Of a stretch of DNA of 40,717 nucleotides, positions 2,824 through 40,082 are shown piece by piece. The notes under the pieces are model-generated. The model was not told where the DNA came from, ran no database searches, and was given only the letters and a program-made list of their open reading frames with translations. Position 1 is the first letter of the stretch, and each line of letters starts with the position of its first letter. Made by a program: the position numbers and the translations under genes. The DNA is from Candidatus Bathyarchaeota archaeon (GTDB lineage Archaea > Thermoproteota > Bathyarchaeia > Bathyarchaeales > Bathyarchaeaceae), in NCBI GenBank assembly GCA_030608565.1, contig JAUWDY010000012.1, positions 1 through 40,717 of the forward strand. Reading direction: 5' to 3'.

Positions 2824-2934
2824 TTACTTTTCTTTCCTCAGCCATTTTGTAATAGACTTGGCGGTTATTTTTCTTTCACGCTCGGCATGTTTAGAATTTT
2901 TCCTCAGCTGATGGACTCTGCTGTTTGCATGCAT
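2824..2934 (-). CDS. Possible 36-residue basic peptide or gene fragment
   Basis: A short minus-strand frame begins with ATG inside the TGCATGCATGCA palindrome and ends at TAA at 2824-2826. The peptide is lysine- and arginine-rich, with SKHAERERKITAKSITKW in the centre, and reads like natural protein rather than chance translation. No family is recognised. It may be a small gene or the tail of a lost larger one. There is no strong ribosome-binding site. Confidence 0.27.
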   Translation of the reverse strand: MHANSRVHQLRKNSKHAERERKITAKSITKWLRKEK

Positions 2935-2937
2935 GCA
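2926..2937. repeat. TGCATGCA palindrome, site 1 (12-base form)
   Basis: TGCATGCATGCA is a perfect self-complementary 12-mer. It is the first of eleven sites in the window sharing the core TGCATGCA, and lies in the gap before the YjbQ gene. Confidence 0.8.
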
Positions 2938-3033
2938 CGATCCGTTCTCCTCGGAATTCTAGCAATCATTAATCATTACCCACAAGATTTTTTATTCCTA
3001 GAATTGCAAGTCTTTCACTAAGAGGAAAACAAA

Positions 3034-3438
3034 ATGAGAATCGTTAACGAAAGCCTTACGTTCTCCACCAAGGGCGAAATCGACTTTATTGATCTTACTG
3101 ACAGAGTCCAAGAAGTCGTGAAAAGCGCAGGCATCAAGAACGGTCTAGCCCACGTGTTTGCCCCTCACGCCACAGGCATAATAGTCCTAACAGAACATGA
3201 ACCAAGTCTACTCAACGACATCAGAAACTTTCTCGAAAAACTGATTCCTAAACGCGGTCCTTATCAACATCCATCCAACGCTCATTCGCATCTACGATCG
3301 ATGCTTTTCCCTCCAGACAGGACGTTGCCTATAGTTGACGGACGAGTTGTTTTGGGTACATGGCAGTCTCTGCTTTTCATTGAAACTGACGTTTATCCAA
3401 GAAGAAGAACAGTGGTTGTGCAGGTAATTGGTGAATAG
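3034..3438 (+). CDS. YjbQ / UPF0047 family protein
   Basis: This 134-residue protein belongs to the YjbQ (UPF0047) family, whose members are small homo-oligomeric beta proteins. Some bacterial members complement thiamin-phosphate synthase defects, but the physiological role is unsettled. Typical marks are FAPHATGIIVLTEHEP, the NAHSHLRSMLFPP segment with conserved histidines, and the closing GTWQSLLFIETD followed by PRRRTVVVQVIG. The length matches the family. The ATG at 3034 is preceded by aagaggaaaac, a good ribosome-binding site. No thiamin gene is nearby. Confidence 0.9.
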   Translation: MRIVNESLTFSTKGEIDFIDLTDRVQEVVKSAGIKNGLAHVFAPHATGIIVLTEHEPSLLNDIRNFLEKLIPKRGPYQHPSNAHSHLRSMLFPPDRTLPIVDGRVVLGTWQSLLFIETDVYPRRRTVVVQVIGE

Positions 3439-3929
3439 ACAGCTGGCTAAGAGTCTGCTGATAAAAGCGCAATACCACCTGAAAGAATAGATTCAGGCAT
3501 GAGTATTGGCAACCGCAATGTTACCGGCTTGTCTAGGGCCAGACGAGTAGCCAATTGCATTTGTGGAGTCTATTTGCCATAGGAACATGGATACGTTTGT
3601 ACTTCGGTTCAGTTGTCATGGTCTTAAAAGGTGTAGTGCGCTTGGTTAATTGCAAAAGAGCATTTTTTCATTGCGTTGAATGAGATTTTTGCGTCCTCTA
3701 TTTAAAGAGTGAAAAATTCGGTTGAATTCGACTTATGTAAACACTCCAAAAGTAGATTAGTAGCCTGCTTTTTAGGAGTTCATTGCAAAGCGTCGATTGA
3801 TAACATGCTATTGATAGTTAGAAAAATCTAGAAACTTTGGTTCTTCTTCACCTTATATAAACTTCGATAATTTTCGGATGCACACAATGACACAAACGTA
3901 GCTTCAGAATAGCACCTACATGCACCGCT
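3439..3929. other. Intergenic stretch with one repeat copy
   Basis: No coding frame is credible in these 491 bases on either strand. The only distinct element is one copy of a 31-base direct repeat at 3878-3908, matched beyond the next gene at 6021-6051. The downstream ends of a plus-strand and a minus-strand gene face each other here. Confidence 0.5.
3878..3908. repeat. 31-base direct repeat, left copy
   Basis: This copy matches 6021-6051 at 24 of 31 positions without gaps, and the last 13 bases (ACGTAGCTTCAGA) are identical. Both begin ATGCAC. The pair brackets the binding-protein/cyclophilin gene and its upstream region. Confidence 0.6.
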
Positions 3930-5720
3930 CTAATTGACAAGTTCCGCTTTGATTATTCTGACTTCTTCTAGAGGCCTATCATTTTCGTCGGTCTCTACTC
4001 CTGCAATATTGTCAACCACATCCATTCCTTGTATCACTTTCCCAAAAACTGGATGTAATAAGTCCAAGTGGTCATTGTACTTAAGATTAATGAAGAACTG
4101 ACTGCTTCCAGTGTTTGGACCAGAATTCGCCATAGCTATTGTGCCCCTTTCGTTTCTATTATGATCTGTAAATTCATCTGGTATAGTGGGTATTGATGGA
4201 TCTCCATATCCTGTTCCAGTAGGATCTCCCCCCTGAATCATAAAGCCACTGATTACTCTGTGAAAAATAGTGTCATCATAGACCCCTTGTTGGGTCAGGT
4301 TCTTGAAATTTCCTGCTGTAATAGGCATATCATCATACAACTCAATAGTAATATCGCCCATATTCGTGCTGAGCAAAACCCTAGTTACGCTTGGACCATT
4401 TTCCTCAACCGCGGTATGATTGGCTGCATTTTGGTATGCGATTGTGCTGTTGCCGCGCCATTCGTTCATGTACCTTGTCATGTTTTGAGTGTTGGTCCAG
4501 TTGTTGGTTTTGTTGTATATTGCTTCGATTTCGCTTCGGTCTACGTAATGTCCCGCGTATGTGAAGTTGTTCCATGCTAATGTATAATCGTGGCTTGCCT
4601 TGTCTATTTTTTTGATTTCGTTCCACGCTGTCCTGATTAGGTCATGTCGTTCTGTAATCCATGTTTGATAATAATCACCAATGACTTCCTGCAAAGTTTG
4701 GTTATAACCCTCGACATGGGGGAAGTTCAGGTCAAATGGGCCGTACTCTGATGGAAACTCGTTTGCATCTTGACGCATGGGCAAATGATATTTTCCGATT
4801 ATGTTCTGTGCTCGTTCAGTTAGAACGTAGTCTACGAATGCTTTCGCTTCACTTAGATATGTGCCCTTGGCGAATATGGCAATTGGGTCTGGTTGCAGGA
4901 CTGTCTCGTTGAGGTAGGTGAAGTCCACATAGGGAGCGGAGGCTGTCATTATATCATACGCGTAGAAATCTGGAACTACTGCTAAGGGTAGGAAATTTGA
5001 TGTGGTTTGCCATGTGCTGTGTATTTCGTTTATACCGTAGTGTCTGATGAAAGCAGATAGTTTAACCAGATATTCCCATCCATCAGTCCAGTTTTCGCTC
5101 TCAAGAATCAGCATGACAAAGGGTGACATGAGTTCAGACATAACGGGATCGGTCATGGTTATACTTCCTTCGTATTTGTCAAGCGTTAAATCTGCCCAAC
5201 TCTGAGGTTTAGACAAACCTTCGCTGATGAGGTGATCCTCGTTGTACATTACTCCTAAGCCGTACAGACTTGCTGCGTACCAACGGGGAGTGCTTTGGCT
5301 TAAATCAACTAAGGGACAGGAGTAACAGGTTTCGTTTATTTCACCATTGACAAATGGAGTTGCGTTATAGGCAAGTAAAGCGCTGCCTGCCCTTTCGAAG
5401 AGGGCTAGTGGCCCGCCCCACCAGATTTCTGCGTTAGGCTTCCATGGAGCGGTTGTTGCCTTTTCGTACGCGGTTTGCGGGTCAGTTCGTGTCTGCGTAA
5501 CTTCTATGGGGCGCCCGTACCATTCTTTGAAGTCGGCTATTATTTCGTTTATCACCGGGTCTGGTTGATTGTGAAGAATACGGAGTTGTGTGGGATGCGG
5601 TACTACATAGACGTAATAGCTTGCACTTGCCATGCTGACAGTAAAAATTCCGGCTATAACAATGACAACGATAGTGGAAGTGGGCAATTTCAGTGTATGT
5701 AAGCCTCCTTGATAGTGCAA
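3930..5720 (-). CDS. Membrane-anchored solute-binding protein fused to a cyclophilin
   Basis: This 596-residue exported protein joins two domains rarely found together. After a short N-terminus comes a membrane anchor or signal (about residues 14-38). Residues about 40-400 look like an ABC-type extracellular solute-binding protein of the ferric/thiamine type (ILHNQPDPVINEIIADFKEW, AEIWWGGP, WYAASLYGLGVMYNE, PQSWADL). Residues 445-596 are a cyclophilin peptidyl-prolyl isomerase with FHRVISGFMIQGGD, GSSQFFINL and HPVFGKV, so the catalytic Arg, Gln and Phe are present. Many Asn-X-Ser/Thr sites suggest surface glycosylation. No permease or ATPase lies nearby. The start is uncertain: TTG at 5720 opens the frame, but a strong Shine-Dalgarno (minus strand, 5704-5710) lies inside it, pointing to a start near CTG 5693 or TTG 5687. 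Four TTAGAGGTT sites lie upstream. Confidence 0.85.
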   Translation of the reverse strand: MHYQGGLHTLKLPTSTIVVIVIAGIFTVSMASASYYVYVVPHPTQLRILHNQPDPVINEIIADFKEWYGRPIEVTQTRTDPQTAYEKATTAPWKPNAEIWWGGPLALFERAGSALLAYNATPFVNGEINETCYSCPLVDLSQSTPRWYAASLYGLGVMYNEDHLISEGLSKPQSWADLTLDKYEGSITMTDPVMSELMSPFVMLILESENWTDGWEYLVKLSAFIRHYGINEIHSTWQTTSNFLPLAVVPDFYAYDIMTASAPYVDFTYLNETVLQPDPIAIFAKGTYLSEAKAFVDYVLTERAQNIIGKYHLPMRQDANEFPSEYGPFDLNFPHVEGYNQTLQEVIGDYYQTWITERHDLIRTAWNEIKKIDKASHDYTLAWNNFTYAGHYVDRSEIEAIYNKTNNWTNTQNMTRYMNEWRGNSTIAYQNAANHTAVEENGPSVTRVLLSTNMGDITIELYDDMPITAGNFKNLTQQGVYDDTIFHRVISGFMIQGGDPTGTGYGDPSIPTIPDEFTDHNRNERGTIAMANSGPNTGSSQFFINLKYNDHLDLLHPVFGKVIQGMDVVDNIAGVETDENDRPLEEVRIIKAELVN

Positions 5721-5824
5721 CCATACAAAAGAATTACGTTAATAGTTTTCGGTTAAAAGACTAACGAAGAGCCTGAACGCTTCCAACTCAAGCACAGCAC
5801 GTTGTTCTAGACACCGATCATTTC

Positions 5825-5833
5825 ATGCATGCA
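5825..5833. repeat. TGCATGCA palindrome, site 2
   Basis: ATGCATGCA lies upstream of the binding-protein gene, about 20 bases before the first TTAGAGGTT box. A shorter relative (TGCATGC) occurs at 6146-6152. Confidence 0.75.
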
Positions 5834-5851
5834 ACTGAAACAATGTTAAAT

Positions 5852-5973
5852 TTAGAGGTTGCAACATTAAAAAACCTCTAATTAACCTCTAATCTCCTTT
5901 TTTCTGCAGATCCTTCAAATTACAATTAACACAATGTTCAAAACTGTTAACAAATAATGGTTCTTTAGAGGTT
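5852..5973. promoter_or_regulatory. Cluster of four TTAGAGGTT operator-like boxes
   Basis: The 9-mer TTAGAGGTT occurs at 5852-5860 and 5965-5973, and its reverse complement AACCTCTAA at 5873-5881 and 5884-5892. The middle two are direct repeats whose starts are 11 bases apart, about one helical turn, and the first two form an inverted pair. Four exact copies in 122 bases between divergent genes suggest binding sites for a dimeric regulator. The regulator is unknown. Confidence 0.6.
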
Positions 5974-6020
5974 TACTTAGTTGAGATAATGGTGAGTTAA
6001 TGGAGCAACTTCTAGAACCA

Positions 6021-6051
6021 ATGCACGCACGGAATAAGACGTAGCTTCAGA
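6021..6051. repeat. 31-base direct repeat, right copy
   Basis: Partner of 3878-3908; see that entry. The two copies are 2,143 bases apart in the same orientation. Confidence 0.6.
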
Positions 6052-6188
6052 GCAAACGTGTCATTTCTATTTGATCGTCTGATAAATAGCTTTAAATGGT
6101 TTCTCGTTGGAGTCCTCTTTGGCTGTCAGAGGCATTTTTGAATTGTGCATGCCCATTACGGACGCCCCATACATGCAGGGTTGATTAA

Positions 6189-6746
6189 ATGGATTCAAGG
6201 ACATGGGTAGAGCTCCGTAAAATGAGTAAAAGAGATTGGAGAGCCATATCAATTGTGACCATTTCAGTTGGCATAATATCCCTCTATTGTGCTTGTATCA
6301 CATTTTCCTATTCTGAATGGGAACCATCCACGATGGGGAGAGGACACATAAAAAATCCATTTCGTCAATATTCATCTAGTCTACTGATTATCGGAGTTCC
6401 ATTTACAGCTCTAGGATTAGGCTCAGCATACATGCATATGAGGAGTGAAATCATGAAGAGGAGGAAAAAACTGCTAATGATTGCGACGATAATCCTTTTA
6501 GCCATTACAATAATCTGGGCGGTAGCGCTTTACCAGCATATTCTAGCTTATAACAGAATGCTCCAAGTCTACGAAGAGCTTGAATTATATGGTCTACCGA
6601 AACCACTTTTCGAATGGCGAAACGGCCCTATCCTAATGGTATCGGGGTGCATACTAGCTTTTGCGTGGATATTCCTCATTGCCGGGTGGTGGAAGGTGCT
6701 ATCCTCTAAAACTAATCCATGCATGCACCCCAATCCAGAAACATGA
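6189..6746 (+). CDS. Four-pass membrane protein of unknown function
   Basis: This 185-residue protein is not recognised. Four hydrophobic segments are visible, at about residues 18-38, 64-82, 94-114 and 145-168, arranged as two hairpins with a basic loop (RSEIMKRRKKL) between them. The basic loop and the positive-inside rule suggest both ends are cytoplasmic. The ATG at 6189 was chosen as the first in-frame ATG; the later ATG of MSKRDW (residue 12) is an alternative. The palindrome TGCATGCA falls in its last codons (NPCMHPNPET), so the true 3' end may have been altered by that element. A tRNA 3' fragment follows 35 bases after the stop. Confidence 0.55.
   Translation: MDSRTWVELRKMSKRDWRAISIVTISVGIISLYCACITFSYSEWEPSTMGRGHIKNPFRQYSSSLLIIGVPFTALGLGSAYMHMRSEIMKRRKKLLMIATIILLAITIIWAVALYQHILAYNRMLQVYEELELYGLPKPLFEWRNGPILMVSGCILAFAWIFLIAGWWKVLSSKTNPCMHPNPET
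6719..6727. repeat. TGCATGCA palindrome, site 3
   Basis: ATGCATGCA overlaps the last codons of the membrane protein at 6189-6746, the only one of the eleven core sites that falls inside a long reading frame. It lies about 55 bases before the tRNA 3' fragment. Confidence 0.7.
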
Positions 6747-6780
6747 AAATGGGGTTTTGCGGGAGATATCTCCACTTGGT

Positions 6781-6809
6781 GTGGGGTTCAAATCCCACCC
6801 CGCCCGCCA
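6781..6809 (+). pseudogene. Orphan tRNA 3' fragment (T arm, acceptor strand, CCA)
   Basis: The 11-mer GGTTCAAATCC is a perfect tRNA B-box/T-loop. GTGGG and CCCAC flank it as a T stem, with one surplus G before the loop, then CCCGCCC, a discriminator G and an encoded CCA. No matching 5' half (an acceptor strand pairing with CCCGCCC) was found upstream, so this is a 3' piece and not a whole gene. Such fragments are typical of sites where a recombinase used a tRNA 3' end as its attachment site. A recombinase-like tail remnant lies 38 bases further on. Confidence 0.55.
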
Positions 6810-6846
6810 CAGACGCACCCCATACCATAAAGACTATTTCTAGCGG

Positions 6847-6891
6847 TCAATTGCGTTTACGAAAAACTATGACTCCCTCAGGAGTGTTGAA
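6847..6891 (-). pseudogene. Possible recombinase C-terminal tail remnant
   Basis: The minus strand reads FNTPEGVIVFRKRN followed by a stop. Archaeal tyrosine recombinases often end in a GFEYV...FRKRK-like tail (from memory, not searched). A similar tail occurs at 9951-10019. A stop codon lies directly upstream, so only the last 14 residues remain. It is short, and the assignment rests mainly on context next to a tRNA 3' fragment. Confidence 0.3.
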
Positions 6892-7021
6892 TCAAAAAAC
6901 TAACACGGAAACTATTCTTTCCCTGTTGTGACTATGCACACAAGCGCACAAGTCATTGGTTTTATCGGTTAAGCTTTTATTCTCTGCGAATCAAATACTT
7001 CTAAATTTAAAGGGGGTATCA

Positions 7022-7507
7022 ATGGTTATAGGCTCAGAGTTCTTGACTTCTGTGCTACTCTGGTTTGTCCGTGCATTCGTTTCAAGCGCAATATGTTTGT
7101 TTATTGGTTATGTTGGAATAAGGAGTTTGACTCATATAACAACCGAAATTAGTGAGTTCAAAACCATCAAGGGAGATCCGCTGGCAACAAGTCTTTTTAT
7201 AAGTGGTTTTTTCATTTTCGCAGGGCTTGTAGTATATGGGTCGATGGTTAATCCCTTCTTCCTAGGACAATCCGTCGTATTTGGCTCTTACTTCAACGTG
7301 CAACGCCTCTTAGTTGTAGTGTTAAGTTTTTGTGTGAGTCTTTTCTTCGGGTGGTTTTTCTATGTCGTCTTTGCGAAGTTGACGCCTTTTGGGATAGACT
7401 TGGATGATGTAAATAAATCTCCCGTAGCTGTTGGAATCTTCCTATTTGGTTATGAAGTATTTTTGGGCTTGATTGTCTACGCTAGCCTGATGATACCCCT
7501 AGGCTAG
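7022..7507 (+). CDS. DUF350-like membrane protein with internal duplication
   Basis: This protein of about 161 residues has four hydrophobic segments in two similar halves. PLATSLFISGFFIFAGLVVY in the first half aligns with PVAVGIFLFGYEVFLGLIVY in the second, each followed by a Met-Pro or Asn-Pro turn. This internal repeat matches the DUF350 family of small membrane proteins; the function is unknown. The frame opens at 6956, but ATG 7022 is preferred because aaaggggg lies just before it. The gene is 11 bases upstream of a transglutaminase-like gene on the same strand, so they are probably co-transcribed. Confidence 0.6.
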   Translation: MVIGSEFLTSVLLWFVRAFVSSAICLFIGYVGIRSLTHITTEISEFKTIKGDPLATSLFISGFFIFAGLVVYGSMVNPFFLGQSVVFGSYFNVQRLLVVVLSFCVSLFFGWFFYVVFAKLTPFGIDLDDVNKSPVAVGIFLFGYEVFLGLIVYASLMIPLG

Positions 7508-7518
7508 AGAGGAAATGC

Positions 7519-8586
7519 ATGACCCGTCTACCGACCCTAATGATGTTGATCATTCTCCTAGCTGTGTGTTTAGCAAAAGAAACCTACAGCTTTCCAAGTG
7601 GCGAAAATTATCCCCCGACTTTCACATTCAGAAATGGAGCATGGTATGACACTTGGGGATTCAACAGAAATTATTACGGGGAACAGGATGGATACATGCC
7701 CAATATCGCCTATGAAACACTTGGACCCGACAGGGAACTAGCATATGGTCTAGGAGAATGGTTTAAGAGCAACTACGGTAATACGGTGCGAAGGGCTACA
7801 GCGATTCTGAGGTATGTTCAAAGATGGACAAGTTATGGTTATGATTCCGACAACGTATATATGAATGGGGTAGCTCAAGAGGAGTGGGCTTGGAACGCTG
7901 ACGAAATGGCACACATGCTAAACGAAACCACAAACACTATTGCTGTTGGGGACTGTGAAGATCTAGCCTTTTTATGCGCCACAATGTACATGGCAGCAGG
8001 CATCGATGCAGCTATGGTTTTGGCGCCTCAACATGTTGCTTTGCTAATCTGGCTTCCTGAATACTCAAATGCCAACTGTTATTGGGACCTACCAGATGAC
8101 GGGAGAACAGCAGGCTGGATCTGGGTTGAAGCTACTTGTTCACAGAATCCCATAGGCTGGACTCCTCCTGAATTCGCAGGTGGTGACTGGACAGCCTATC
8201 CATTAGGTTTCATCGAGTTCAACGTTCAATACTTGCCACAACTCCCGCAGGCAGAAGACGATGTAGTGGTGACAGCCCGTGTTGTCAGCTCAAGAGCGTC
8301 TGTCAGCACAGTTTCGCTAAACTATTCTATCCAAGATGGACCATACAATGAACTATTGATGGAAGCTGAAGGATCAACATATGAAGCCATCATACCGAAA
8401 CAGCCAGATGGAACTAGATTAGTCTTCTACGTTTCCGCTACTGACAGCGAGGGTCTCATAAGAAAGTCGGAGCGGTTCGAATACACAGTAGGGCAGGAAT
8501 TCAAAATCCCACCTTTCGCTCTTGAGGCCCTTATTCTAATCTTCATTTTTGTATTGTTCATAGCCTTACTGGCTAAAAGAAAGTAG
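7519..8586 (+). CDS. Exported transglutaminase-like protein with C-terminal anchor
   Basis: This 355-residue protein has an N-terminal signal (residues about 4-24) and a C-terminal membrane helix (about 330-350) followed by AKRK, so the body lies outside the cell. The central domain is transglutaminase/cysteine-protease-like: GDCEDLA gives the catalytic Cys, APQHVALLIW the His, and GWIWVEATC an acidic partner region. Residues about 245-325 look like a beta-sandwich (VVSSRASVSTVSLNY, YVSATDSEGLIRKSE). Such proteins may cross-link or cleave surface proteins; the substrate is unknown. It follows the DUF350-like gene by 11 bases, with gaggaaatgc as ribosome-binding site. Confidence 0.8.
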   Translation: MTRLPTLMMLIILLAVCLAKETYSFPSGENYPPTFTFRNGAWYDTWGFNRNYYGEQDGYMPNIAYETLGPDRELAYGLGEWFKSNYGNTVRRATAILRYVQRWTSYGYDSDNVYMNGVAQEEWAWNADEMAHMLNETTNTIAVGDCEDLAFLCATMYMAAGIDAAMVLAPQHVALLIWLPEYSNANCYWDLPDDGRTAGWIWVEATCSQNPIGWTPPEFAGGDWTAYPLGFIEFNVQYLPQLPQAEDDVVVTARVVSSRASVSTVSLNYSIQDGPYNELLMEAEGSTYEAIIPKQPDGTRLVFYVSATDSEGLIRKSERFEYTVGQEFKIPPFALEALILIFIFVLFIALLAKRK

Positions 8587-8717
8587 TGCGTGCTACCTTT
8601 CTTTTGAGGTCATTATGCTTGTTGCGTTCAAAGCTTTGTTGACTAAAGGAAAATAGCGTTTGCGTATTAGAAAAAAGAGGGACAAGATAATCCACGTATA
8701 TGGCATGTCAAGCTAGG

Positions 8718-9311
8718 TTACCCGCCGGTTTTACTGATGAGATCCCACCAAGCGCCGTACATCTCTTCGTAGTCAAATTGGATTCGAGAGTACTCGATTG
8801 TTATCGCATCCATTGGATGTTGACCTTGGTAGGTATTTCCCAATGTTTGGAAAGAGCTGATTAGTACATCGCTGAAAGTCACCCTCAAGAACTCTTCAGA
8901 TAGTTCTCCAATTGAGCGAACTGAAAGCACTACCGTTCCCAGATGTCGCCCTTCTGCACAAGCTAAGAAGAACTTCGGAGAGGCCTTGGGATCCATCTCA
9001 AAGATGAACTGGAAGTCTTCCATCTCAACTTGGCCGGCACCTGCACCTGCATACGTGCTGCCACTTTGGGTCTCCGACCAGCTGAATTCTTCTATTTCGA
9101 TCTGCTTGTCATACGTAATATCTATTGATGATCCTGGAATACTCTCTATCTTAAGAAAGGCTTCGTATGTCTTCACCCCAGCCCCGAACTGGTAATAAGC
9201 CACGTTCTTCGCATCATTTGAAGGGGCAAACTGTATCAGACCGTAGATGGTGGAACCGCCAATGGCGATGCCAACTATTATCAGAGCTGCGTAGGATAGC
9301 AATTTATTCAA
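8718..9311 (-). CDS. Membrane-anchored Hcp-like (type VI tube) protein
   Basis: This 197-residue protein starts with a signal anchor (residues 5-27). From about residue 50 it follows the Hcp family pattern: AFLKIESIPGSS, IEIEEFSWSETQSG, GAGAGQVEMEDFQF, DPKASPKFFLACAEGRH, VVLSVR, then DVLISSFQTLG and IQFDYEE. In bacteria Hcp forms hexameric rings of the type VI secretion tube and has no signal anchor. Here an anchor is present and no other type VI gene is nearby, so a role as a surface ring or scaffold is more likely than secretion. The TTG start at 9311 follows a strong Shine-Dalgarno (aaggagga). TATA-like elements lie at about 9331-9339 and 9358-9366. Confidence 0.75.
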   Translation of the reverse strand: MNKLLSYAALIIVGIAIGGSTIYGLIQFAPSNDAKNVAYYQFGAGVKTYEAFLKIESIPGSSIDITYDKQIEIEEFSWSETQSGSTYAGAGAGQVEMEDFQFIFEMDPKASPKFFLACAEGRHLGTVVLSVRSIGELSEEFLRVTFSDVLISSFQTLGNTYQGQHPMDAITIEYSRIQFDYEEMYGAWWDLISKTGG

Positions 9312-9388
9312 CTTTTCTCCTCCTTAACCCTATATAAAACACATGACGACACATTTCACATAAACCTTCCTATAGGAGCTGGAAGGCT

Positions 9389-9397
9389 ATGCATGCA
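9389..9397. repeat. TGCATGCA palindrome, site 4
   Basis: ATGCATGCA in the gap between the Hcp-like gene and the alkyltransferase gene; a second copy lies 75 bases away. Confidence 0.75.
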
Positions 9398-9463
9398 AAA
9401 TTTTTGTAGCTTTTGGAAGACTAGCAATGTTATGTAGAATGTCAAATCCTACAAATTTAATCC

Positions 9464-9472
9464 ATGCATGCA
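9464..9472. repeat. TGCATGCA palindrome, site 5
   Basis: ATGCATGCA, preceded by CC as at 6717 and 24420. It lies 33 bases beyond the 3' end of the alkyltransferase gene. Confidence 0.75.
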
Positions 9473-9504
9473 GTTAGAATGCGTGTGCCCCTATAACACA
9501 GTGG

Positions 9505-12792: not shown

Positions 12793-12847
12793 AACTTTTA
12801 CTTACTCACTTTCACTACGTAAATATATTGCAACTGTTTACCTTTTT

Positions 12848-12857
12848 ATGCATGCAT
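12848..12857. repeat. TGCATGCA palindrome, site 6
   Basis: ATGCATGCAT, a perfect 10-base palindrome, 56 bases upstream of the ligase start codon. An imperfect relative (GCATGCA) lies at 13282-13288. Confidence 0.75.
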
Positions 12858-12983
12858 TTTGGGTTATTGTGTATTGGTCTTGATAAACTGCCTGAGTCTG
12901 TTGGCGAATATTGGGTTAGTCCTGAGGGTTGGAGTGAGAAACATACGCATTCATAACGTTGTTATGAGCGGTGAAAGTTAAGG

Positions 12984-13088
12984 ATGAGCAAAAAACAAGA
13001 GGTTGTAATGATTCCAAAAAAGGTTTTGAGAGAAATTTCGAAACGTCTCGGGCAGGTAGAAAGAAAATTAAGAAAAGCTGACTTCTAG
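12984..13088 (+). CDS. Possible small basic protein (34 residues)
   Basis: ATG at 12984 follows taagg and opens a 34-codon frame ending at TAG 13086-13088. The peptide begins MSKKQEVVMIPKKVLREISK and continues as a basic amphipathic helix (RLGQVERKLRKADF). The pattern 'VVMIPKKVLREI' resembles the N-terminal strand and helix of small archaeal antitoxin-like or DNA-binding proteins. No partner toxin gene is adjacent. Confidence 0.4.
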   Translation: MSKKQEVVMIPKKVLREISKRLGQVERKLRKADF

Positions 13089-13366
13089 AGGCTCTCTCCT
13101 TGCGTGCGAATAGGTTTAGTGGACCATGCAACCAATCATGTTTTGGTCCTCTGCCGCGGTATATAGGTTATTAGGGCACCAACTTGAGAATTTTGGCTAT
13201 CAAGGTTATGACTGGAATGAACGATGATACAATTAGCTGGTTGAGAGTAGCTAATGAGAAAGGCCACCCCCTCAATTGCACGCATGCAATGTTCAAACAC
13301 TTCCGAAAGACTGTTAGTGACATAAATATTTGAAAGTGTATATGTGCTTTTGAGGGGTTATTCATA

Positions 13367-14608
13367 ATGCCTGCAACCAACGATTTTGATGTTTTGGTGA
13401 TTGGCGGTGGCCCAGCGGGTCTCTCTGCTGCGGCTGCATCAGCCAAAGGAGGCTTAAGAGTTGCTGTAATAGAAAAGGATTCAGGCATAGCAGATAAAAT
13501 ACGGACAAGTGGTGCTACATGGTTATCCGAAGTAAAGAAGCTGGGACTGCCACGCAACCTGTACAATCCAATTAGGAGGTATGGCATTTATTCGCCCAGT
13601 AGAGAATACCTTCTTGAGACCCGTAAAGCTGAGGCATGTGTATTAAATGTTAGGAAACTATATCAATACTTGGCGCAAAAAGCTGCTGCACTCGGAGCAG
13701 AAATATTCCTCCAAACTAAAGTCAATCAAGCATCTCTTAAGAAAGACAAAGGCGCGGTAAGAATTTCCGCACACTCTCCTCGGGGTCGTTTGCTCTTTTG
13801 CGGAAAACTTGTGATTGATGCGAGCGGTCACTCCAGTGTCGTAGGCAGAAGTTTGGGTCTGGTAGGTAGATGGGAGCGAATTGGAGTAGGTGTAGAATAT
13901 GAGGCTTACGTGGAAAAAACTGATATTGACACCTGGGCATTAATGGTCGGTCCGACCTATTCTCCTGCGGGATACGCTTGGATTTTTCCTGTGGGAGAAA
14001 ATCGGTTAAGGATTGGTGTAGGGATTGGAAGGCCTGAATCTGATATGAGCCCTTTGAAACAGCTTACACAGCTTATGGAGAAAAAGCCAGGTCCGTTGAA
14101 GAAATTGGGAAGAATTTGCCCAATAGAAGTCCATCATGGAATAGTTCCAACCCAAGGACCGAGGGATACCACAGTGGGAGATCGTGTTTTGCTTGTTGGT
14201 GATTCGGCCGGTCACATAAACCCTCTGTTCTTTGAAGGCATCAGATTTGCCATAAAATTCGGAAAGCTAGCAGGAGAAACTGCAAGGCATGCAATCAACA
14301 GAGAAGATGCACTGAAAACACAGCTTGAAGAATATGAAAAGAATTGGAAAAGGGAAGTCTGGAATGACTTCCAAGTTGGACTGAGTGTGCAGAGTAAATG
14401 GCTCCGGCTATCCGATGAGCAATGGGACCGAGAAATTTCGATCTTGGATTCATTACCAGCAAAAGAAGCTCTTGAATTGTTTAAATGTAGATTTCCAACT
14501 CGGAAACTTTTGAGTCTAGCTGCAAGTCATCCAAAACTCCTACAGAGCCAAAGCTTCGCATCGGTCCTTCAAGCGAAAATGCAAAGAGGCTATTTTCCAA
14601 AAAAATGA
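13367..14608 (+). CDS. Geranylgeranyl-reductase-family FAD oxidoreductase
   Basis: This 413-residue flavoprotein belongs to the family that saturates isoprenoid chains of archaeal lipids or quinones. An N-terminal Rossmann FAD site is clear (VIGGGPAGLSAAAASAKGG, ending in the acidic VIEKD). ASGHSSVVGR gives the middle motif, and GDRVLLVGDSAGHINPLFFE is the second FAD-binding motif of the family; the normal form is GDAAG with a later GxGI, here replaced by FFEGIRFA. The substrate cannot be assigned among related reductases and hydroxylases. A single gene: the ATG at 13367 follows ggggttattcata. Confidence 0.85.
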   Translation: MPATNDFDVLVIGGGPAGLSAAAASAKGGLRVAVIEKDSGIADKIRTSGATWLSEVKKLGLPRNLYNPIRRYGIYSPSREYLLETRKAEACVLNVRKLYQYLAQKAAALGAEIFLQTKVNQASLKKDKGAVRISAHSPRGRLLFCGKLVIDASGHSSVVGRSLGLVGRWERIGVGVEYEAYVEKTDIDTWALMVGPTYSPAGYAWIFPVGENRLRIGVGIGRPESDMSPLKQLTQLMEKKPGPLKKLGRICPIEVHHGIVPTQGPRDTTVGDRVLLVGDSAGHINPLFFEGIRFAIKFGKLAGETARHAINREDALKTQLEEYEKNWKREVWNDFQVGLSVQSKWLRLSDEQWDREISILDSLPAKEALELFKCRFPTRKLLSLAASHPKLLQSQSFASVLQAKMQRGYFPKK

Positions 14609-14656
14609 CGACTGCCTCGCCGACTCATCATGCGCACACATATGCAGTTGAGAGCC

Positions 14657-15769
14657 CTATTCTCTGGCTCTCTCTTTGAAGAGTAGCTCCACCTTTTGCC
14701 TTATGTCTGCTATTTCTTTGGCTAAGGTGATTCGTTCTTTCTTGAGTCTTTCAATTTCTTCTTGTTGTTTCTTGATAATCTTCTCGGTTTCTGAGGGTGT
14801 GGATGTCTCAAGCCTAAGAAAGGGCATAGCCTTCTCAGCATACAGTTTGCGATGGAACTCTGGGTCTTTAGGACGATAGTGCTCGTCGACGCCTTCTCTA
14901 ACTATATGCCCCATCCAAAATTGCACATATTCAAATCCTGCAGGAGTCGCATATTTTCTGAAGAATTTACGTAGGTTATAGAGTCTAATCTCAGCAGGTT
15001 TTCTGTAAACTCGTTTCTTAATTGTCAGTGCATCACATTTCTCAAGTTTACGAGTAATCTTGCTAAAAGTTCTACTAGGACTTTTGGGGGTAAGTTGCTT
15101 ATTTTTACGTTCACGCAAACAGGCAAAAAGATAATCATCAGATCGTATATGTGGTCTCGTTTTCAAATAGAGTCTTAGGAATCTTACGGTTTCAGGTCCT
15201 ACAAAAGTGAAGTAACTTCGGTATTGGCCTTTAGCTATTTCCGGGGGCACATCAATTTTCAATGGAATAACACCCGCTTCAAAATCTTTTTGAATGTGTT
15301 CATAGCGGAGTTTGTTAAGTGTGACTGGTCTTAGTCCACTTTGAGCCATCATGCAAAAATATGCTTTGTCTCTGAGATTAGCGTATGCTAGAATTTGCAC
15401 GATTTCTTCGCGGGTAATATCACGATTGTGGTATACACTTCTTGATCTTCCTACTGGAACATAACCTAACGGCAAGTCTGTGTATTTGAAGAAGCTTTTT
15501 ACTACACCTACATAGCTTCGAATAGTGCCTGGGGCACATCCTTGTTTGCTTAGATATACTATGAAGTTTTGCAGAGTTTGCGCGTATTTTCTTTTAAACT
15601 CGCGGTCGGTGGTATTGTTATAATCATCTTGAATTTGCTGTGGCGTTTTCGCCATAAAGCTGGTAAAAGTTTTCAGTATTGAACGATAAGAGCTTTCAGT
15701 TGCCTTGCTTTTTGAATGGCTATATTGCACGTTCACTATCCATTTATCCACGATATCGAATTTTTCCAT
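14657..15769 (-). CDS. Tyrosine recombinase with C-terminal coiled coil
   Basis: This 370-residue integrase-type recombinase has an N-terminal SAM-like core-binding domain (residues about 5-100) and a catalytic domain (about 115-310). Catalytic residues visible are Arg147 in SGLRPVTL, the second box RLYNLRKFFRKY (a Tyr where the usual His stands), WMGH, and the nucleophile in DEHYRPKD. A charged coiled coil (residues about 325-368, EKIIKKQQEEIERLKKER) ends the protein and may hold it as an oligomer. It is unrelated in detail to the recombinase at 1539-2132. No att site or cargo is evident nearby. It converges with the flavoprotein gene with 48 bases between stops. Confidence 0.85.
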   Translation of the reverse strand: MEKFDIVDKWIVNVQYSHSKSKATESSYRSILKTFTSFMAKTPQQIQDDYNNTTDREFKRKYAQTLQNFIVYLSKQGCAPGTIRSYVGVVKSFFKYTDLPLGYVPVGRSRSVYHNRDITREEIVQILAYANLRDKAYFCMMAQSGLRPVTLNKLRYEHIQKDFEAGVIPLKIDVPPEIAKGQYRSYFTFVGPETVRFLRLYLKTRPHIRSDDYLFACLRERKNKQLTPKSPSRTFSKITRKLEKCDALTIKKRVYRKPAEIRLYNLRKFFRKYATPAGFEYVQFWMGHIVREGVDEHYRPKDPEFHRKLYAEKAMPFLRLETSTPSETEKIIKKQQEEIERLKKERITLAKEIADIRQKVELLFKERARE

Positions 15770-15807
15770 CTTTTGCCATCTACTTTTATGTTAGAAATGG
15801 CATTTGG

Positions 15808-15855
15808 TATATATAAAGGTAGCCTAATATGTTACCAATCTACGTAAAGGTTGCC
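15808..15855 (-). promoter_or_regulatory. Recombinase promoter with flanking AAAGGTWGCC repeats
   Basis: The sequence GTATATATAAAGG at about 15808-15819 reads on the minus strand as a strong TATA box about 45 bases before the recombinase ATG (15769). Overlapping and upstream are direct repeats AAAGGTAGCC (15815-15824) and AAAGGTTGCC (15846-15855), with GTTACC between them. Placed over and next to the TATA box, they could be autoregulatory operators. Confidence 0.45.
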
Positions 15856-17776: not shown

Positions 17777-18077
17777 ACATGTACCTCCTTTGTTCTTTAA
17801 AACGTTAATTCTTCTTGAAAATCGGATGAAATGCTCCGACTTAAAGATGGCCACACTAAGAAACTGTGCTAGACCAAACGTTCTACTGAAGCATCACAAT
17901 AAGAGGCGATATATTAAGTTATTGATTAGTTGTGTATACATGGACTCAGCTGTTTTCACGGTTTGCCGACTTGCATGCATTAATCCGTTACCCTTAATTT
18001 TTGTTAAAATGCCCCGATAGGTATCCAAAAGTCTCAAATTCCTTTCCTAACCAGATAGAAGTTGGGTCGGAGACCAT
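17777..18077. other. Divergent gap with one palindrome
   Basis: This 301-base gap between the nuclease and the acetyltransferase genes has no credible coding frame. It holds TGCATGCAT at 17972-17980 and AT-rich stretches that could serve as promoters. Confidence 0.5.
17972..17980. repeat. TGCATGCA palindrome, site 7
   Basis: TGCATGCAT in the divergent gap, about 100 bases upstream of the acetyltransferase start. Confidence 0.75.
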
Positions 18078-24417: not shown

Positions 24418-24436
24418 AACCATGCATGCAATGGTT
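24418..24436. repeat. TGCATGCA palindrome, site 8, inside a larger hairpin
   Basis: AACCAT and ATGGTT are perfect inverted arms around GCATGCA, five bases after the stop codon of the CYTH gene. It is the only core site in the window enclosed by a longer stem. It could act as a terminator-like or binding structure, and abuts a transporter pseudogene. Confidence 0.7.
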
Positions 24437-27149: not shown

Positions 27150-27151
27150 AC

Positions 27152-33630: not shown

Positions 33631-33740
33631 TGCTCCGGCCGGGATTTGAACCCGGGTCGGCGGCTTTCTTCCATAATCAAACGTCGAGAGGCCGTCATAC
33701 ATGGTTCATTTCATGTTTAACCTGACTATACTACCGGAGC
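33631..33740 (-). tRNA. tRNA-Glu (CUC anticodon), probably with two introns
   Basis: The acceptor arms GCTCCGG and CCGGAGC pair fully, and the T arm CCGGG-TTCAAAT-CCCGG and discriminator A are canonical; CCA is not encoded. The anticodon loop CTCTCGA gives anticodon CUC (33686-33688). The gene is 110 bases, about 35 too long. A 16-base insert lies between the D arm and the anticodon arm (33697-33712), and about 19 bases after the anticodon at 37/38 (33666-33684); removing both gives a normal 75-base tRNA. Such positions fit archaeal bulge-helix-bulge introns. The first insert overlaps a perfect hairpin (ACATG/CATGT). The exact splice points are inferred; A27-C43 would be a mismatch in the anticodon stem. 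Confidence 0.85.
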
Positions 33741-33770
33741 AACAGAAGATTGGATTCCTATGAGAGATAA

Positions 33771-33968: not shown

Positions 33969-34118
33969 TCTTGCAACTCGATAAACAGAATCTTCCGAAT
34001 CCATCATTCCGCACAAACCCGAAGAAATCTGGAATTTTCCTTAACCCATTTAGGAAAACCAATGTATAATAAGTGCAAGAAATATCTTCTTTATCGGAAA
34101 AGAATGCTTGGAGTAAAT

Positions 34119-35489: not shown

Positions 35490-35654
35490 GTCAATCCATT
35501 TCTAAGTTTCAATCGACTTTTGTGACTTGTCAAAGAAACTCTAATCAAACTCTAAATGGCCTACTGGATTGCCATGACTAGAGAAAATGAATTTGCCCTT
35601 AAGACTATTGACACCAAGTAGGTTTGTTGAAGCAAAAAAGGGAATGTAAGGAGA

Positions 35655-37304: not shown

Positions 37305-37429
37305 ACAAACTCCTCCATTAACAAATATTTAATCTAACTACACCAATTTCCTCTCGGATATAAACCTTTTTCACTAATTAGTGAGTCGTGACTTGAAATT
37401 CTGAAATAAAGGGAAGGTGAAGATGCGAT

Positions 37430-37651
37430 TTATTTGCCCATAATTTTCTTTACAGCTATCTCGATGTCTTTTGCCTGAACCGTTTTTCTTCTAGCATGCT
37501 CGGCGTAGTCTTTGGCTTCTGAAGCAATTTTGATGCCGATATCTTCAAGCGCCTTTGCTAATTCCTTTGCCGCTGACTCACTTACTCTTTCTGCCCCTGC
37601 TTTCTTGCATATCCTATGCATTGGGGCTACAGATAACTCGGAGTTTTTCAT
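37430..37651 (-). CDS. Archaeal histone
   Basis: This 73-residue protein is a standard histone-fold monomer that wraps DNA as dimers or longer chains. SVAPMHRICKKAGAERVSES gives helix 1, AAKELAKALEDIGIKIASEAKDYAEHA helix 2 (with the usual charged surface), and RRKTVQAKDIEIAVKKIMGK loop 2 and helix 3. The frame opens at 37732, but ATG 37651 (MKNSELSV) gives normal family length and has ggag eight bases upstream. The gene stands alone beside the thermosome. Confidence 0.93.
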   Translation of the reverse strand: MKNSELSVAPMHRICKKAGAERVSESAAKELAKALEDIGIKIASEAKDYAEHARRKTVQAKDIEIAVKKIMGK

Positions 37652-37805
37652 ATAACCGTCTCCATAGCTTCTTTTTTTGTTTAAGTCACCATTTAACCTT
37701 TTCGGAGACTGTAAGCGTCGGCACGTGCTCAATGTTAAAAATCAACCCTTTTTAGTCCATCTTATTCTCAGTTATACCTGCATTTGTGAAAAAGGGCATA
37801 AACGA

Positions 37806-37857
37806 GATTCACCTTTGAAATAGCATTAAAGGTAATTGAATCGCATTTCATAAATGC
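37806..37857. other. Hairpin cluster upstream of eS17
   Basis: GATTC (37806-37810) and ACCTTT (37811-37816) pair with AAAGGT (37828-37833) and GAATC (37838-37842), with AATT bulged; GCATTT (37843-37848) pairs with AAATGC (37852-37857) around a three-base loop. These stems end about 75 bases before the eS17 start. They could form a leader structure; no family is recognised. Confidence 0.3.
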
Positions 37858-37930
37858 TGTCAAGACGCAAGTAATAAAAGGCACGGGAAATGCAACAGTA
37901 ATGGCGAGATAGATAAGACATGGTTTAGGG

Positions 37931-38170
37931 ATGGAGGCAAGTGCGTACTTGGGTAAAGTTCGAACAGAAAAGGTGAAAAAAGTAGCTAGAGAACTGGTGA
38001 GGCAACACCCAAACAAGTTCACTGCAGATTTCAAGAACAACCAAGAACTGGTCAAATCTCTTACCATAATTTCTACAGCAAGGTTAAGAAATAGAATAGC
38101 AGGTTATATTACCCGATTATTGGCCAGTGTGGAAGCTGACCGGATTTCTGAAACGGAAGAAACAGAATAA
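37931..38170 (+). CDS. rps17e: Ribosomal protein eS17
   Basis: This 79-residue basic protein belongs to the S17e family of the small subunit. Matching features are GKVRTEKVKKVARELV, HPNKFTADFKNNQELV and STARLRNRIAGYITRLL, all conserved in archaeal and eukaryotic eS17. The first six residues (MEASAY) are longer than usual; TTG of LGKVRT may be the true start. It is followed 55 bases later by the HEPN-like/ubiquitin-fold gene pair on the same strand. Confidence 0.92.
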   Translation: MEASAYLGKVRTEKVKKVARELVRQHPNKFTADFKNNQELVKSLTIISTARLRNRIAGYITRLLASVEADRISETEETE

Positions 38171-38228
38171 CAGCTTTAATTTGTGGATTGCTTAACCCGC
38201 GTTTACATCGGGAGATGAGTGAACGTTG

Positions 38229-38597
38229 ATGGTAGATGAATATAGGAAAGGATGGGCCTTACGCTATCTAAGGGAAGCGAAGGCAGAGTTAATTGCGGCT
38301 CAAAAGACGCCGTACATGGCTCCAAGCTTGATTTTGGAAGCCGTAAGAAAGGCTCAGGTGGCCATATACTATAGTCTAGGTGATCCAGCGTTTGTTGAGA
38401 CAATCGTCCGTCAAACTATAGGCAAGAAAAAAGTTGTTGAAGACCCGGTTTTAAGGTGCCTTGTTGAAATTGAGCGGACGGTTCAGCGGGTTGTACAGTC
38501 TCCAGAGCCAAATCATGAGAAGGCTATTGAACGAGCAGATGGCCTTATCCAAATTGCATCGGACATCGTGGAGCTTTTGACAGGTGAGACAGCATAG
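38229..38597 (+). CDS. HEPN-like helical protein, first of a gene pair
   Basis: This 122-residue, all-helical protein resembles a HEPN-type four-helix bundle (YRKGWALRYLREAKAELIAA, then APSLILEAVRKAQVAIYYSL). The RxxxH active motif of HEPN ribonucleases is not seen, so it is probably not a toxin. Its stop (TAG) shares one base with the GTG start of the downstream ubiquitin-fold gene, so the two are translationally coupled and probably work together. Starts: TTG 38226 or ATG 38229. Confidence 0.55.
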   Translation: MVDEYRKGWALRYLREAKAELIAAQKTPYMAPSLILEAVRKAQVAIYYSLGDPAFVETIVRQTIGKKKVVEDPVLRCLVEIERTVQRVVQSPEPNHEKAIERADGLIQIASDIVELLTGETA

Positions 38598-38884
38598 TGA
38601 ACGTGAAGGTGAAGCTTTTAGGGGTTTTTCGGGGGCTTTCTGGAAAAAGCCGGCTTTCAATAGAACTGGGTGAACCAACGGTTATGAGGAAGCTTGTTGA
38701 AAAACTTGCTGAATCTCTTTCACCAAAATTTAAGCAAGCATTAGTTGACCCGGAACTTGATGACCCAAGGCCGAACACGCTTATTCTTGTGAATGGAAGG
38801 GAGATCAGTGTTCTTCATGGTCTTGAAACTGAAATTTGTGATGGCGACGAGGTGGTTCTGATCCCAGTTTCACACCGCGGATAA
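38597..38884 (+). CDS. MoaD/ubiquitin-fold protein
   Basis: This 95-residue protein has the MoaD/ThiS beta-grasp fold, used in archaea as sulfur carrier for molybdopterin or tRNA thiolation and as ubiquitin-like modifier (SAMP). The opening VKVKLLGVFRGLSG and the end DGDEVVLIPVSHRG fit. MoaD proteins normally end in Gly-Gly; here only a single final Gly is present (HRG), which may still be adenylated. The start is GTG 38597, overlapping the previous stop by one base. No E1 or molybdopterin gene is in the window. Confidence 0.75.
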   Translation: MNVKVKLLGVFRGLSGKSRLSIELGEPTVMRKLVEKLAESLSPKFKQALVDPELDDPRPNTLILVNGREISVLHGLETEICDGDEVVLIPVSHRG

Positions 38885-39118
38885 GTCGAATAGCATTTTG
38901 TTAGATTAAAAGTGGATGTTGCCTACTCAAATCAAGTGGGGGTATCCTCTGCGATTTTACCTCTCTTTGACGAAAGTAATTTTGAATAGATTTTTTGTGC
39001 GGCTGCTTGGCAAACGGGCATGTCGGACACGCATATATCATTTTTCGCAATATTTATTGACTAGAAGTATTCCCTATAAGAAGATTTCATAGTTTAGTTC
39101 TATTTAGAGGACAGAGGT

Positions 39119-39319
39119 ATGACGAAAAGCGTTTGCACGTTTATAGGAAATCCGGCTGCCATTTTCCAAACAATTATGGATGTGACGCTTCCTCTATCTA
39201 TAGGACCTATTGAAATAACGTTTCTACTTTTGTCTCTTATAGCGATCTTCTTCGGAGTCGTTTATTCAATACGCCTGCGCATGTGTATCAGTTACTTGGT
39301 GGGTCAGGGAATTGGATAA
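39119..39319 (+). CDS. Possible small membrane protein
   Basis: ATG 39119 follows gaggaca and opens a 66-codon frame with one strong membrane helix (IEITFLLLSLIAIFFGVVYSI). The segment after the helix becomes unlike protein (RMCISYLVGQGIG), while another frame continues well at 39312-39404 (below). A frameshift between about 39270 and 39315 is possible. No family is recognised. Confidence 0.4.
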   Translation: MTKSVCTFIGNPAAIFQTIMDVTLPLSIGPIEITFLLLSLIAIFFGVVYSIRLRMCISYLVGQGIG

Positions 39320-39404
39320 GGGAACCTTTGAGCTCTACAGACAATTAAGGGAGCATGGTTACTCCCACAAGGTAATTCATCATATTCTGAAAATCTATAA
39401 ATAG
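39312..39404 (+). CDS. Possible 30-residue frame, perhaps tail of the 39119 gene
   Basis: TTG 39312 opens LDKGTFELYRQLREHGYSHK followed by VIHHILKIYK and TAG. The peptide reads like a real helical domain. It lies in a different frame from the membrane-helix frame at 39119 and may be the displaced end of that protein, or a small gene. No ribosome-binding site is clear. Confidence 0.3.
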   Translation: MDKGTFELYRQLREHGYSHKVIHHILKIYK

Positions 39405-39547
39405 TGCAACATTTTTCACTAGATAAAACATTATGAAAGTAAGTGTATATTCCCTATTCTAACGTTTTCCAGCCACGTGGTGACAACCACCCCAGCATTT
39501 CCCCCTTTTTTCCTGAAGATACATCCACGAATTAATGTTTGTTTGTA

Positions 39548-39559
39548 GCATGCATGCAT
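39548..39559. repeat. TGCATGCA palindrome, site 9
   Basis: GCATGCATGCAT in the gene-poor stretch; the first core site after a 15 kb gap without any. Confidence 0.75.
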
Positions 39560-39777
39560 CTTTGGAGCCTCTACTCTTGTTAGGACAAAAGAGAGAATTA
39601 AACGTAGGAGCACTGAGAATTCCTCATAGCACGACTTCCTAGTCTTGAATGCATCATCCAGAAGCTTCTTTCTCAAATCTCTAGTTTCTGCATGTTTCTG
39701 AAGGTTCAGCGTTCATGTTCTATCAGATTTGGAACCCCTTGCCTCTAAGCCTTGTATATGCTATCTAGAATATATTA

Positions 39778-39803
39778 GTTTAACTTTAATGTTAAAGCTA
39801 AAC
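39778..39803. repeat. 12-base inverted repeat with two-base loop
   Basis: GTTTAACTTTAA (39778-39789) pairs with TTAAAGCTAAAC (39792-39803) with one mismatch. It lies 25 bases before a second, perfect inverted repeat. Confidence 0.5.
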
Positions 39804-39827
39804 GTATATTCTCCGCGTGGCCCTGCT

Positions 39828-39851
39828 TTGTCAAAACAATAGTTTTGACAA
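39828..39851. repeat. Perfect 10-base inverted repeat
   Basis: TTGTCAAAAC (39828-39837) and GTTTTGACAA (39842-39851) are exact complements around AATA. It could be an operator or an RNA stem-loop; the following sequence is not T-rich enough for an obvious terminator. Confidence 0.5.
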
Positions 39852-40006
39852 TTGAGTTATGATAAACTAGGCTATTTTGAGTACTCTATTTGTGTTAGAA
39901 ATCGTGAGACAAAAAAAAGAGGAAGAGTTGGGAGTTGGCTTGTTTACTTCTCAATCGCCTTTTCAAACAGTAGGTAATGCTTGACTTCCCCAACCGTTCC
40001 AGCAAG

Positions 40007-40016
40007 ATGCATGCAT
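40007..40016. repeat. TGCATGCA palindrome, site 10
   Basis: ATGCATGCAT, 66 bases before site 11. Confidence 0.75.
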
Positions 40017-40072
40017 GTCAGAGTTGTACGTTAATTTGTGTCAAAACGTCCACGATCTATGTTAAACGCGAT

Positions 40073-40082
40073 ATGCATGCAT
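40073..40082. repeat. TGCATGCA palindrome, site 11
   Basis: ATGCATGCAT, 20 bases beyond the 3' end of the TBP gene. Confidence 0.75.

What the first reader, a model, noticed from the sequence alone, without database searches (positions are those of the whole stretch)
2926..40082. TGCATGCA palindrome scattered outside genes at eleven places
The self-complementary core TGCATGCA occurs at 2926, 5826, 6720, 9390, 9465, 12849, 17972, 24423, 39551, 40008 and 40074, often extended to 10-12 bases. Ten sites are outside genes and one is at the 3' end of a gene, although genes fill most of the window. At about 40% GC my rough hand estimate is under one chance copy in 40 kb. Shorter relatives occur at 6146 and 13282. 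None lie between 24.4 and 39.5 kb, and several sit next to recombinase, tRNA or transporter remnants. It could be a binding site of an architectural or regulatory protein, a site used by mobile elements, or a methylation or replication signal.
Basis: partly seen in the sequence, partly recalled or inferred. Interest (0 to 1): 0.72.

Follow-up and report, generated by a model that had tools for sequence, protein, structure and literature searches.

The report
Palindromic linkers joining shuffled genome pieces
In this lineage of uncultured archaea (Bathyarchaeia), the short self-complementary sequence TGCATGCA is not a protein-binding site but a 'glue mark' found at the joints where genes and gene fragments have been cut, moved and rejoined, which points to an undescribed way of stitching DNA ends together.

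Summary
TGCATGCA occurs at 11 places in the window (0.68 matches expected) and 332 times in the genome, against 5 for its reversed control. It is purely intergenic: in 440 kb, 87 copies against about 2 expected, and 8 in genes against 5 to 6 expected. Shared tracts diverge as fast as their flanks, density is equal in promoter-less convergent gaps, and flanks carry no consensus.

Compared with a 93-98% identical relative, homology breaks at 18 of 24 informative tracts (random intergenic positions: 6.5%). Tracts bound shuffled segments. Examples are a 3.6-kb window block absent from the relative, where one TGCATGCA remains; identical single-gene cassettes at two or three loci; and an 86-bp piece of an intact gene captured between two tracts. 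At 19 of 45 linker-marked ends the other copy has no linker, so it is added at joints. GCGCGCGC behaves alike. Abundance is confined to two families in 398 genomes of the phylum.

My best explanation is scars of a Ku-independent end joining that adds self-complementary (GCAT)n/(GC)n tails. The junction role is well supported. The enzyme is inferred; site-specific cassette recombination is the main rival.

The parts
2926..2937 (.). linker tract TGCATGCATGCA (12 bp)
   Evidence: alignment to G003 (94%) stops at 2912, 14 bp before it
5824..5833 (.). linker tract CATGCATGCA, left boundary of the block absent from G003
   Evidence: homology to G003 C31 ends exactly at 5833
5834..9462 (.). 3.6-kb block (Yip1-like, transglutaminase-like and Hcp-like genes) present here, absent from G003, where one CATGCATGCA joins the two flanks (G003 C31:160197-160206)
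6718..6727 (.). linker tract CATGCATGCA inside the block, encoding part of the C-terminus of ORF 6189-6746
9389..9397 (.). linker tract ATGCATGCA
9398..9462 (.). 65-bp unit between two linkers; a 95% identical copy lies at G003 C31:36059-36121
9463..9472 (.). linker tract CATGCATGCA, right boundary of the block absent from G003
   Evidence: homology to G003 restarts exactly at 9463
12824..15840 (.). 3.0-kb insertion relative to G003 (geranylgeranyl-reductase-like gene and tyrosine recombinase) with 8-bp target duplication TACGTAAA
12848..12857 (.). linker tract ATGCATGCAT, 24 bp inside the left end of that insertion
17972..17980 (.). linker tract TGCATGCAT; G003 has TGCATGTATGTATG plus about 40 bp of other sequence here
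24421..24430 (.). linker tract CATGCATGCA, 7 bp after the stop of the CYTH-domain gene
39548..39559 (.). linker tract GCATGCATGCAT
40007..40017 (.). linker tract ATGCATGCATG downstream of the TATA-binding-protein gene
40018..40072 (.). 55-bp unit between two linkers
40073..40083 (.). linker tract ATGCATGCATG, 18 bp downstream of the TATA-binding-protein gene

Best explanation
The tracts are DNA joints. SHOWN: in this Bathyarchaeia genome and its relative G003, TGCATGCA tracts (8-15 bp) sit at the boundaries of segments that occupy different places in the two genomes. The segments are genes, gene cassettes and 50-300-bp fragments, including a piece of an intact gene. The tract is often absent from the other copy of the same end, so it is added when ends are joined. 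It then drifts like neutral sequence. INFERRED: free DNA ends receive a short self-complementary 3' tail of (GCAT)n or (GC)n. Because such tails pair with themselves, any two tailed ends can anneal, be filled in and be ligated. This would be a Ku-independent end joining that leaves a fixed-sequence scar, and a scar can be cut and re-used, so units with linker ends move again. The most plausible enzyme is the replicative primase PriSL or a relative, which in Saccharolobus has terminal-transfer activity, anneals strands by as little as two G-C pairs and repairs breaks without Ku (PMC12019639). The purely intergenic distribution follows from selection: joints inside genes are lost.
For: Intergenic-only enrichment, replicated in G003, G012 and G009. 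18 of 24 informative intergenic tracts are homology breaks against 281 of 4300 control positions, Fisher p = 7e-17; other palindromes give 5 of 85. Units bounded by linkers at both ends, in different contexts: HAD gene 792 bp at G003 C10 and C12, 99% identical and inverted; 298-bp zinc-ribbon-like gene at three G003 loci with its stop codon abutting the linker; 100-bp, 102-bp and 208-bp units. 86-bp piece of an intact 413-codon gene between two linkers. At 45 linker-marked ends the other copy has a linker in 14, a relic in 12 and none in 19. No flank consensus, no inverted-repeat arms and no abutting duplication around 237 tracts, which argues against transposon ends and against recombinase arms. 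(GC)n and mixed (GCAT/GC) tracts behave alike. Ku is absent from every linker-bearing relative and present in 7 linker-free ones.
Against: A fixed filler sequence is unusual: known non-templated additions are heterogeneous. Repeated mobility of the same units with the same ends looks like site-specific recombination. The Ku contrast is confounded by ancestry (four of the seven Ku genomes are in f1, three of them one genus). Many Ku-less families have no linkers, so loss of Ku is not sufficient. No enzyme was identified, and PriSL was not tested for here. In Saccharolobus, PriSL repair leaves mostly 1-2-bp changes (PMC12019639). Larger inserts carry 8-17-bp target duplications at outer ends without linkers, a second process not explained by tailing alone. 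All genomes are metagenome assemblies.
Confidence: 0.5

Rival explanations
1. Site-specific cassette recombination. TGCATGCA/GCGCGC is the recognition and crossover site of a recombinase or endonuclease-ligase system, and genes between two sites are excised and reinserted, much as integron cassettes are.
For: The same units move repeatedly with identical linker ends. The window block 5834-9462 has one CATGCATGCA at each end and G003 has exactly one at the empty site. Tyrosine recombinases are numerous (18 in this genome), two of them in the window.
Against: No arms or any sequence beyond the tract are conserved. 19 of 45 linker ends have no site in the other copy, and a gene-internal fragment was captured. 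Tract length and composition vary. Recombinase number does not track linker number (rho 0.23, p 0.25).
Confidence: 0.25
2. Telomerase-like or retroelement-encoded templated addition: a reverse transcriptase copies an RNA template into (TGCA)n at broken ends, as telomerase does at breaks in mammals.
For: The repeat unit is fixed across genera. Mammalian interstitial telomeric repeats are a close behavioural precedent (PMC2246262).
Against: (GC)n and mixed tracts also serve as linkers. No reverse transcriptase was sought. Prokaryotes are not known to have telomerase (own knowledge).
Confidence: 0.08
3. Binding site of an architectural or regulatory protein.
For: Palindromic, intergenic and highly iterated.
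Against: Divergence inside shared tracts is 6.5% against 5.0% in flanks. Equal density in convergent and divergent gaps, 12 per 15.1 kb and 22 per 27.6 kb. 75% of informative sites are rearrangement joints.
Confidence: 0.04
4. Terminal repeats or insertion target of a transposon or MITE family.
For: A few sites adjoin a shared stem-loop-like sequence (7 of 475 flanks). Large inserts carry target duplications.
Against: 401 of 475 flanks are unrelated to each other. No flank consensus and no abutting duplication. The moved content is host genes.
Confidence: 0.06
5. Assembly or library artefact: chimeric contigs joined by a linker.
For: All genomes are metagenome assemblies and the sequence is a short palindrome at joints.
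Against: Joints avoid genes 43-fold. Joints are shared by two genomes with normal divergence across them. Single-contig genomes carry them too (G001, G009, G011). Closely related lineages consistently lack them.
Confidence: 0.03
6. Short tandem repeat slippage of a TGCA unit.
For: Tracts have period 4 and variable length.
Against: Tract length peaks at 10 bp and stops at 14-15 instead of falling from 8. Only this unit shows it among tetranucleotides. It does not explain the breaks.
Confidence: 0.02

Closest known systems
Interstitial telomeric sequences inserted at double-strand breaks in mammals (PMC2246262)
   Same: A short fixed tandem repeat is added at a break during repair and is recognised by comparing filled and empty orthologous loci.
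   Different: Here it is an archaeon, the unit is self-complementary TGCA or GC, the tracts join shuffled segments, and no telomerase is known.
Primase-promoted microhomology end joining of Saccharolobus, pp-MMEJ (PMC12019639)
   Same: Ku-independent; terminal transfer; annealing by two to four G-C pairs would favour GC-bearing self-complementary tails.
   Different: Reported repair leaves mainly 1-2-bp changes and no fixed 8-15-bp linker; PriSL was not tested in this lineage.
Integron gene cassettes and archaeal integrons (PMC9668308)
   Same: Single-gene units bounded by recombination sites, in arrays, shuffled between loci.
   Different: No attC-like structure or flank consensus, no IntI match in the window, units scattered over the whole genome and including non-coding fragments.
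Highly iterated palindrome HIP1 of cyanobacteria (PMC4390886, abstract read)
   Same: Highly iterated 8-bp palindrome.
   Different: HIP1 is linked there to methyltransferases; this one is not enriched in genes and lies at rearrangement joints.
REP/BIME elements (PMC3733652, abstract read)
   Same: Intergenic palindromes in high copy number.
   Different: REPs are 20-40 bp with a tagged end; here 8-15 bp with no tag.

Membership tests
Ku-independent end joining (pp-MMEJ type) | No Ku in the genomes that show it | tested here: met
   no PF02735 in any of the 25 genomes with the 12-mer
Ku-independent end joining (pp-MMEJ type) | Joints between unrelated ends with added nucleotides | tested here: met
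   19 of 45 ends have no linker in the other copy
Ku-independent end joining (pp-MMEJ type) | Dependence on PriSL activity | not testable with these tools
   needs biochemistry; presence of the gene was not searched either
Integron / CALIN | attC sites: structured sites tens of bases long with conserved core | tested here: not met
   at most 0.023 bits per position outside the tract, no inverted-repeat arms
Integron / CALIN | Integron integrase IntI | tested here: inconclusive
   window recombinases match XerA far below cut-off and no IntI-specific model; the other recombinases of the genome were not examined
Transposon / MITE ends | Shared terminal sequence and fixed target duplication at the site | tested here: not met
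   flanks unrelated, 3 of 237 abutting repeats of 3 bp or more against about 6 expected
Regulatory or architectural binding site | Conservation above flanks or promoter bias | tested here: not met
HIP1-like iterated palindrome | Matching orphan DNA methyltransferase | not tested
   no methyltransferase search was made
Telomerase-type addition (ITS) | Reverse transcriptase with RNA template of the repeat | not tested
Microsatellite | Length distribution falling from the shortest tract; other units affected too | tested here: not met
   peak at 10 bp, only the TGCA unit

The most novel reading that the evidence does not exclude
A dedicated genome-assembly system. An enzyme of this lineage puts self-complementary (GCAT)n/(GC)n connectors on the ends of any DNA piece, and the connectors serve as universal sticky ends that are cut and rejoined again, so the chromosome is a shuffled array of autonomous gene cassettes.
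Probability: 0.3. Interest if true: 0.95.

Novelty: categorically new. Interest (0 to 1): 0.85.

Why it matters
Most archaea lack Ku, and how they join broken ends is a long-standing open question; a 2025 paper states that no Ku-independent end-joining pathway had been reported in archaea before it (PMC12019639). A fixed, searchable scar would let past joining events in these genomes be read off the sequence. It would show gene-sized pieces being copied and reshuffled between genomes about 95% identical, and give a direct assay for the enzyme. If the linkers are re-used, they are also natural universal connectors for DNA pieces.

Tried and rejected
Flank clustering for a hidden long element: only 74 of 475 flanks cluster, mostly as orthologues or copies of one unit. 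Alternating purine-pyrimidine (Z-DNA) reading: most other alternating runs are heterogeneous, so the signal is specific to GCAT and GC repeats. Tyrosine recombinase number as the cause: not correlated. Named relatives carrying the ligase locus (BA2, B26-2 and others): no TGCATGCA in 124 kb of loci. Literature: no paper on TGCATGCA in archaea in the held library. Untemplated-polymerase products (PMC13061963) do not mention TGCA or GCGC repeats in the text, so that analogy is weak.
Full report
WHAT WAS CLAIMED AND WHAT IS THERE. The eleven TGCATGCA places are real, with 0.68 expected in shuffles. The window is a contig of a 1.76-Mb Bathyarchaeia genome (G000), as judged from the ligase search, whose hits are all Bathyarchaeota. 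Genome-wide there are 332 copies, against 5 of the reversed control. The 12-mer occurs 42 times against 0.

INTERGENIC ONLY. I called genes with a simple coding model over the window plus twenty 20-kb stretches (440 kb). Intergenic DNA holds 87 copies against 1.4 (order 1) to 6.0 (order 3) expected. Coding DNA holds 8 against 4.4-5.9 expected. The same holds in G003 (180 against 5.1), G012 (11 against 0.85) and G009 (10 against 0.63). Density per kb is equal in divergent, convergent and tandem gaps, so it is not a promoter element. The maximal period-4 tract peaks at 10 bp and ends at 14-15 bp.

THE KEY RESULT. Two unrelated 20-kb stretches compared with the relative G003 gave alignments that stopped at the tracts. 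Done systematically, 24 informative intergenic tracts divide into 18 where homology breaks and 6 where it runs through. Random intergenic positions divide 281 to 4019, and seven other 6-mer palindromes 5 to 80. GCATGC (6 of 11) and GCGCGC (5 of 10) also break often. The Fisher p of 7e-17 overstates independence, since some tracts are neighbours and control positions are 7 bp apart, but the contrast of 75% with 6.5% does not depend on that.

WHAT MOVES. In the window, the 3.6-kb block 5834-9462 is missing from G003, whose two flanks meet at a single CATGCATGCA. Elsewhere a HAD-hydrolase gene lies between TGCATGCATGCA tracts at two G003 loci in opposite orientation (792 bp, 99% identical), and its third copy has no tracts. 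A 298-bp gene for a small zinc-ribbon-like protein sits at three G003 loci with its stop codon touching the linker. Fragments of 65-208 bp recur as whole units. An 86-bp piece of an intact 413-codon beta-helix-type gene lies between two tracts 142 bp away from that gene. The genes carried are ordinary host genes such as chaperonin, phosphofructokinase, proteasome subunit and transporters (named from the translations by eye, not by a family search).

ADDED OR RECOGNISED? Of 45 linker-marked alignment ends, the other copy has a linker in 14, a 6-mer relic in 12 and neither in 19 (chance of a relic within 8 bp is 8%). So linkers are often new at a joint and sometimes re-used. Around 237 tracts there is no sequence consensus, no inverted repeat and no abutting direct repeat. 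Joints shared by both genomes diverge at 6.5% inside the tract and 5.0% outside (based on 155 tract positions); several are visibly decaying. This fits a neutral scar and not a maintained binding site.

A SECOND LAYER. Thirteen gaps in one genome against contiguous sequence in the other were listed. The kilobase-sized insertions of 1.1-14.6 kb mostly carry duplicated target sequence of 8-17 bp at outer ends that bear no linker, with linkers inside. One is in the window: 12824-15840, duplication TACGTAAA, carrying a tyrosine recombinase. The simple tailing model does not explain these duplications.

DISTRIBUTION. In 398 genomes across the phylum the 12-mer is abundant only in families f1 and f6; the highest count elsewhere is 6. 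Ku (PF02735) was found in 7 of 61 relatives, all with zero copies. Within f1, 19 of 23 genomes without a Ku match have copies and 0 of 4 Ku-bearing ones (p 0.004). This is suggestive but confounded by ancestry. GCGCGCGC is likewise intergenic-enriched, and dominates in the f6 genome sampled (9 against 0.18). TGCGCGCA counts alone are less clean.

MECHANISM. I prefer Ku-independent end joining with self-complementary tails. Saccharolobus PriSL offers a precedent for the activities needed: terminal transfer and annealing over two G-C pairs (PMC12019639). Mammalian interstitial telomeric repeats offer one for a fixed repeat as a repair scar (PMC2246262). The main rival is a site-specific cassette system, because the same units move with the same ends. 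Both could be true in sequence: scars created by joining and later re-cut.

NOVELTY. Nothing in the library describes TGCATGCA in archaea. Archaeal integrons (PMC9668308) share the cassette idea but not the site. I rate it categorically new as a phenomenon in prokaryotes, while the enzyme and even the class of mechanism remain inferred.

Noticed in passing
window 12824-15840; also own C31:50334-51472, C42:84808-85863 and G003 C10, C12: Kilobase insertions relative to the close relative with target duplications of unusually variable length (8-17 bp), carrying host genes and sometimes a tyrosine recombinase.
   Followed up: partly
L012:73-201, L016:5089-5576, L030:11174-11322 and G003 copies: A separate dispersed repeat of about 130 bp (CTTTTCCCATCTATTCCTATCGTGGGATAAACC ... 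TTATAGGGGGGTCTA), the likely source of the enriched 8-mers CCCCCCTA and TAGACCCC; not bounded by linkers.
   Followed up: no
window about 6750; right ends of inserts at own C31:51472 and C42:67720: The motif GCGGG(A/G)GA(T/C)ATCTCCAC recurs at insertion ends and near linkers; may be part of another mobile element.
   Followed up: no
window 5834-5890; L020:12105; G003 L046, L052, L064: Some linkers are followed by a stem-loop-like sequence (TTTTTAGTGGTTgcaACATTaaaAACCACTAA ... CTCCTTTTTT) shared by seven loci.
   Followed up: partly
window 8718-9311: A strong Hcp (type VI secretion, PF05638, 7.6e-28) match in an archaeon, on the block that is absent from the relative.
   Followed up: no
relatives G013, G015, G021, G022, G048, G054, G060: Ku genes (over the Pfam cut-off) in several Bathyarchaeia, although Ku is considered very rare in archaea.
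   Followed up: partly
G009, G059, G012 and G003 intergenic DNA: GCGCGCGC is as strongly intergenic-enriched as TGCATGCA, and mixed tracts such as TGCATGCGCGCGCGCAC occur.
   Followed up: partly
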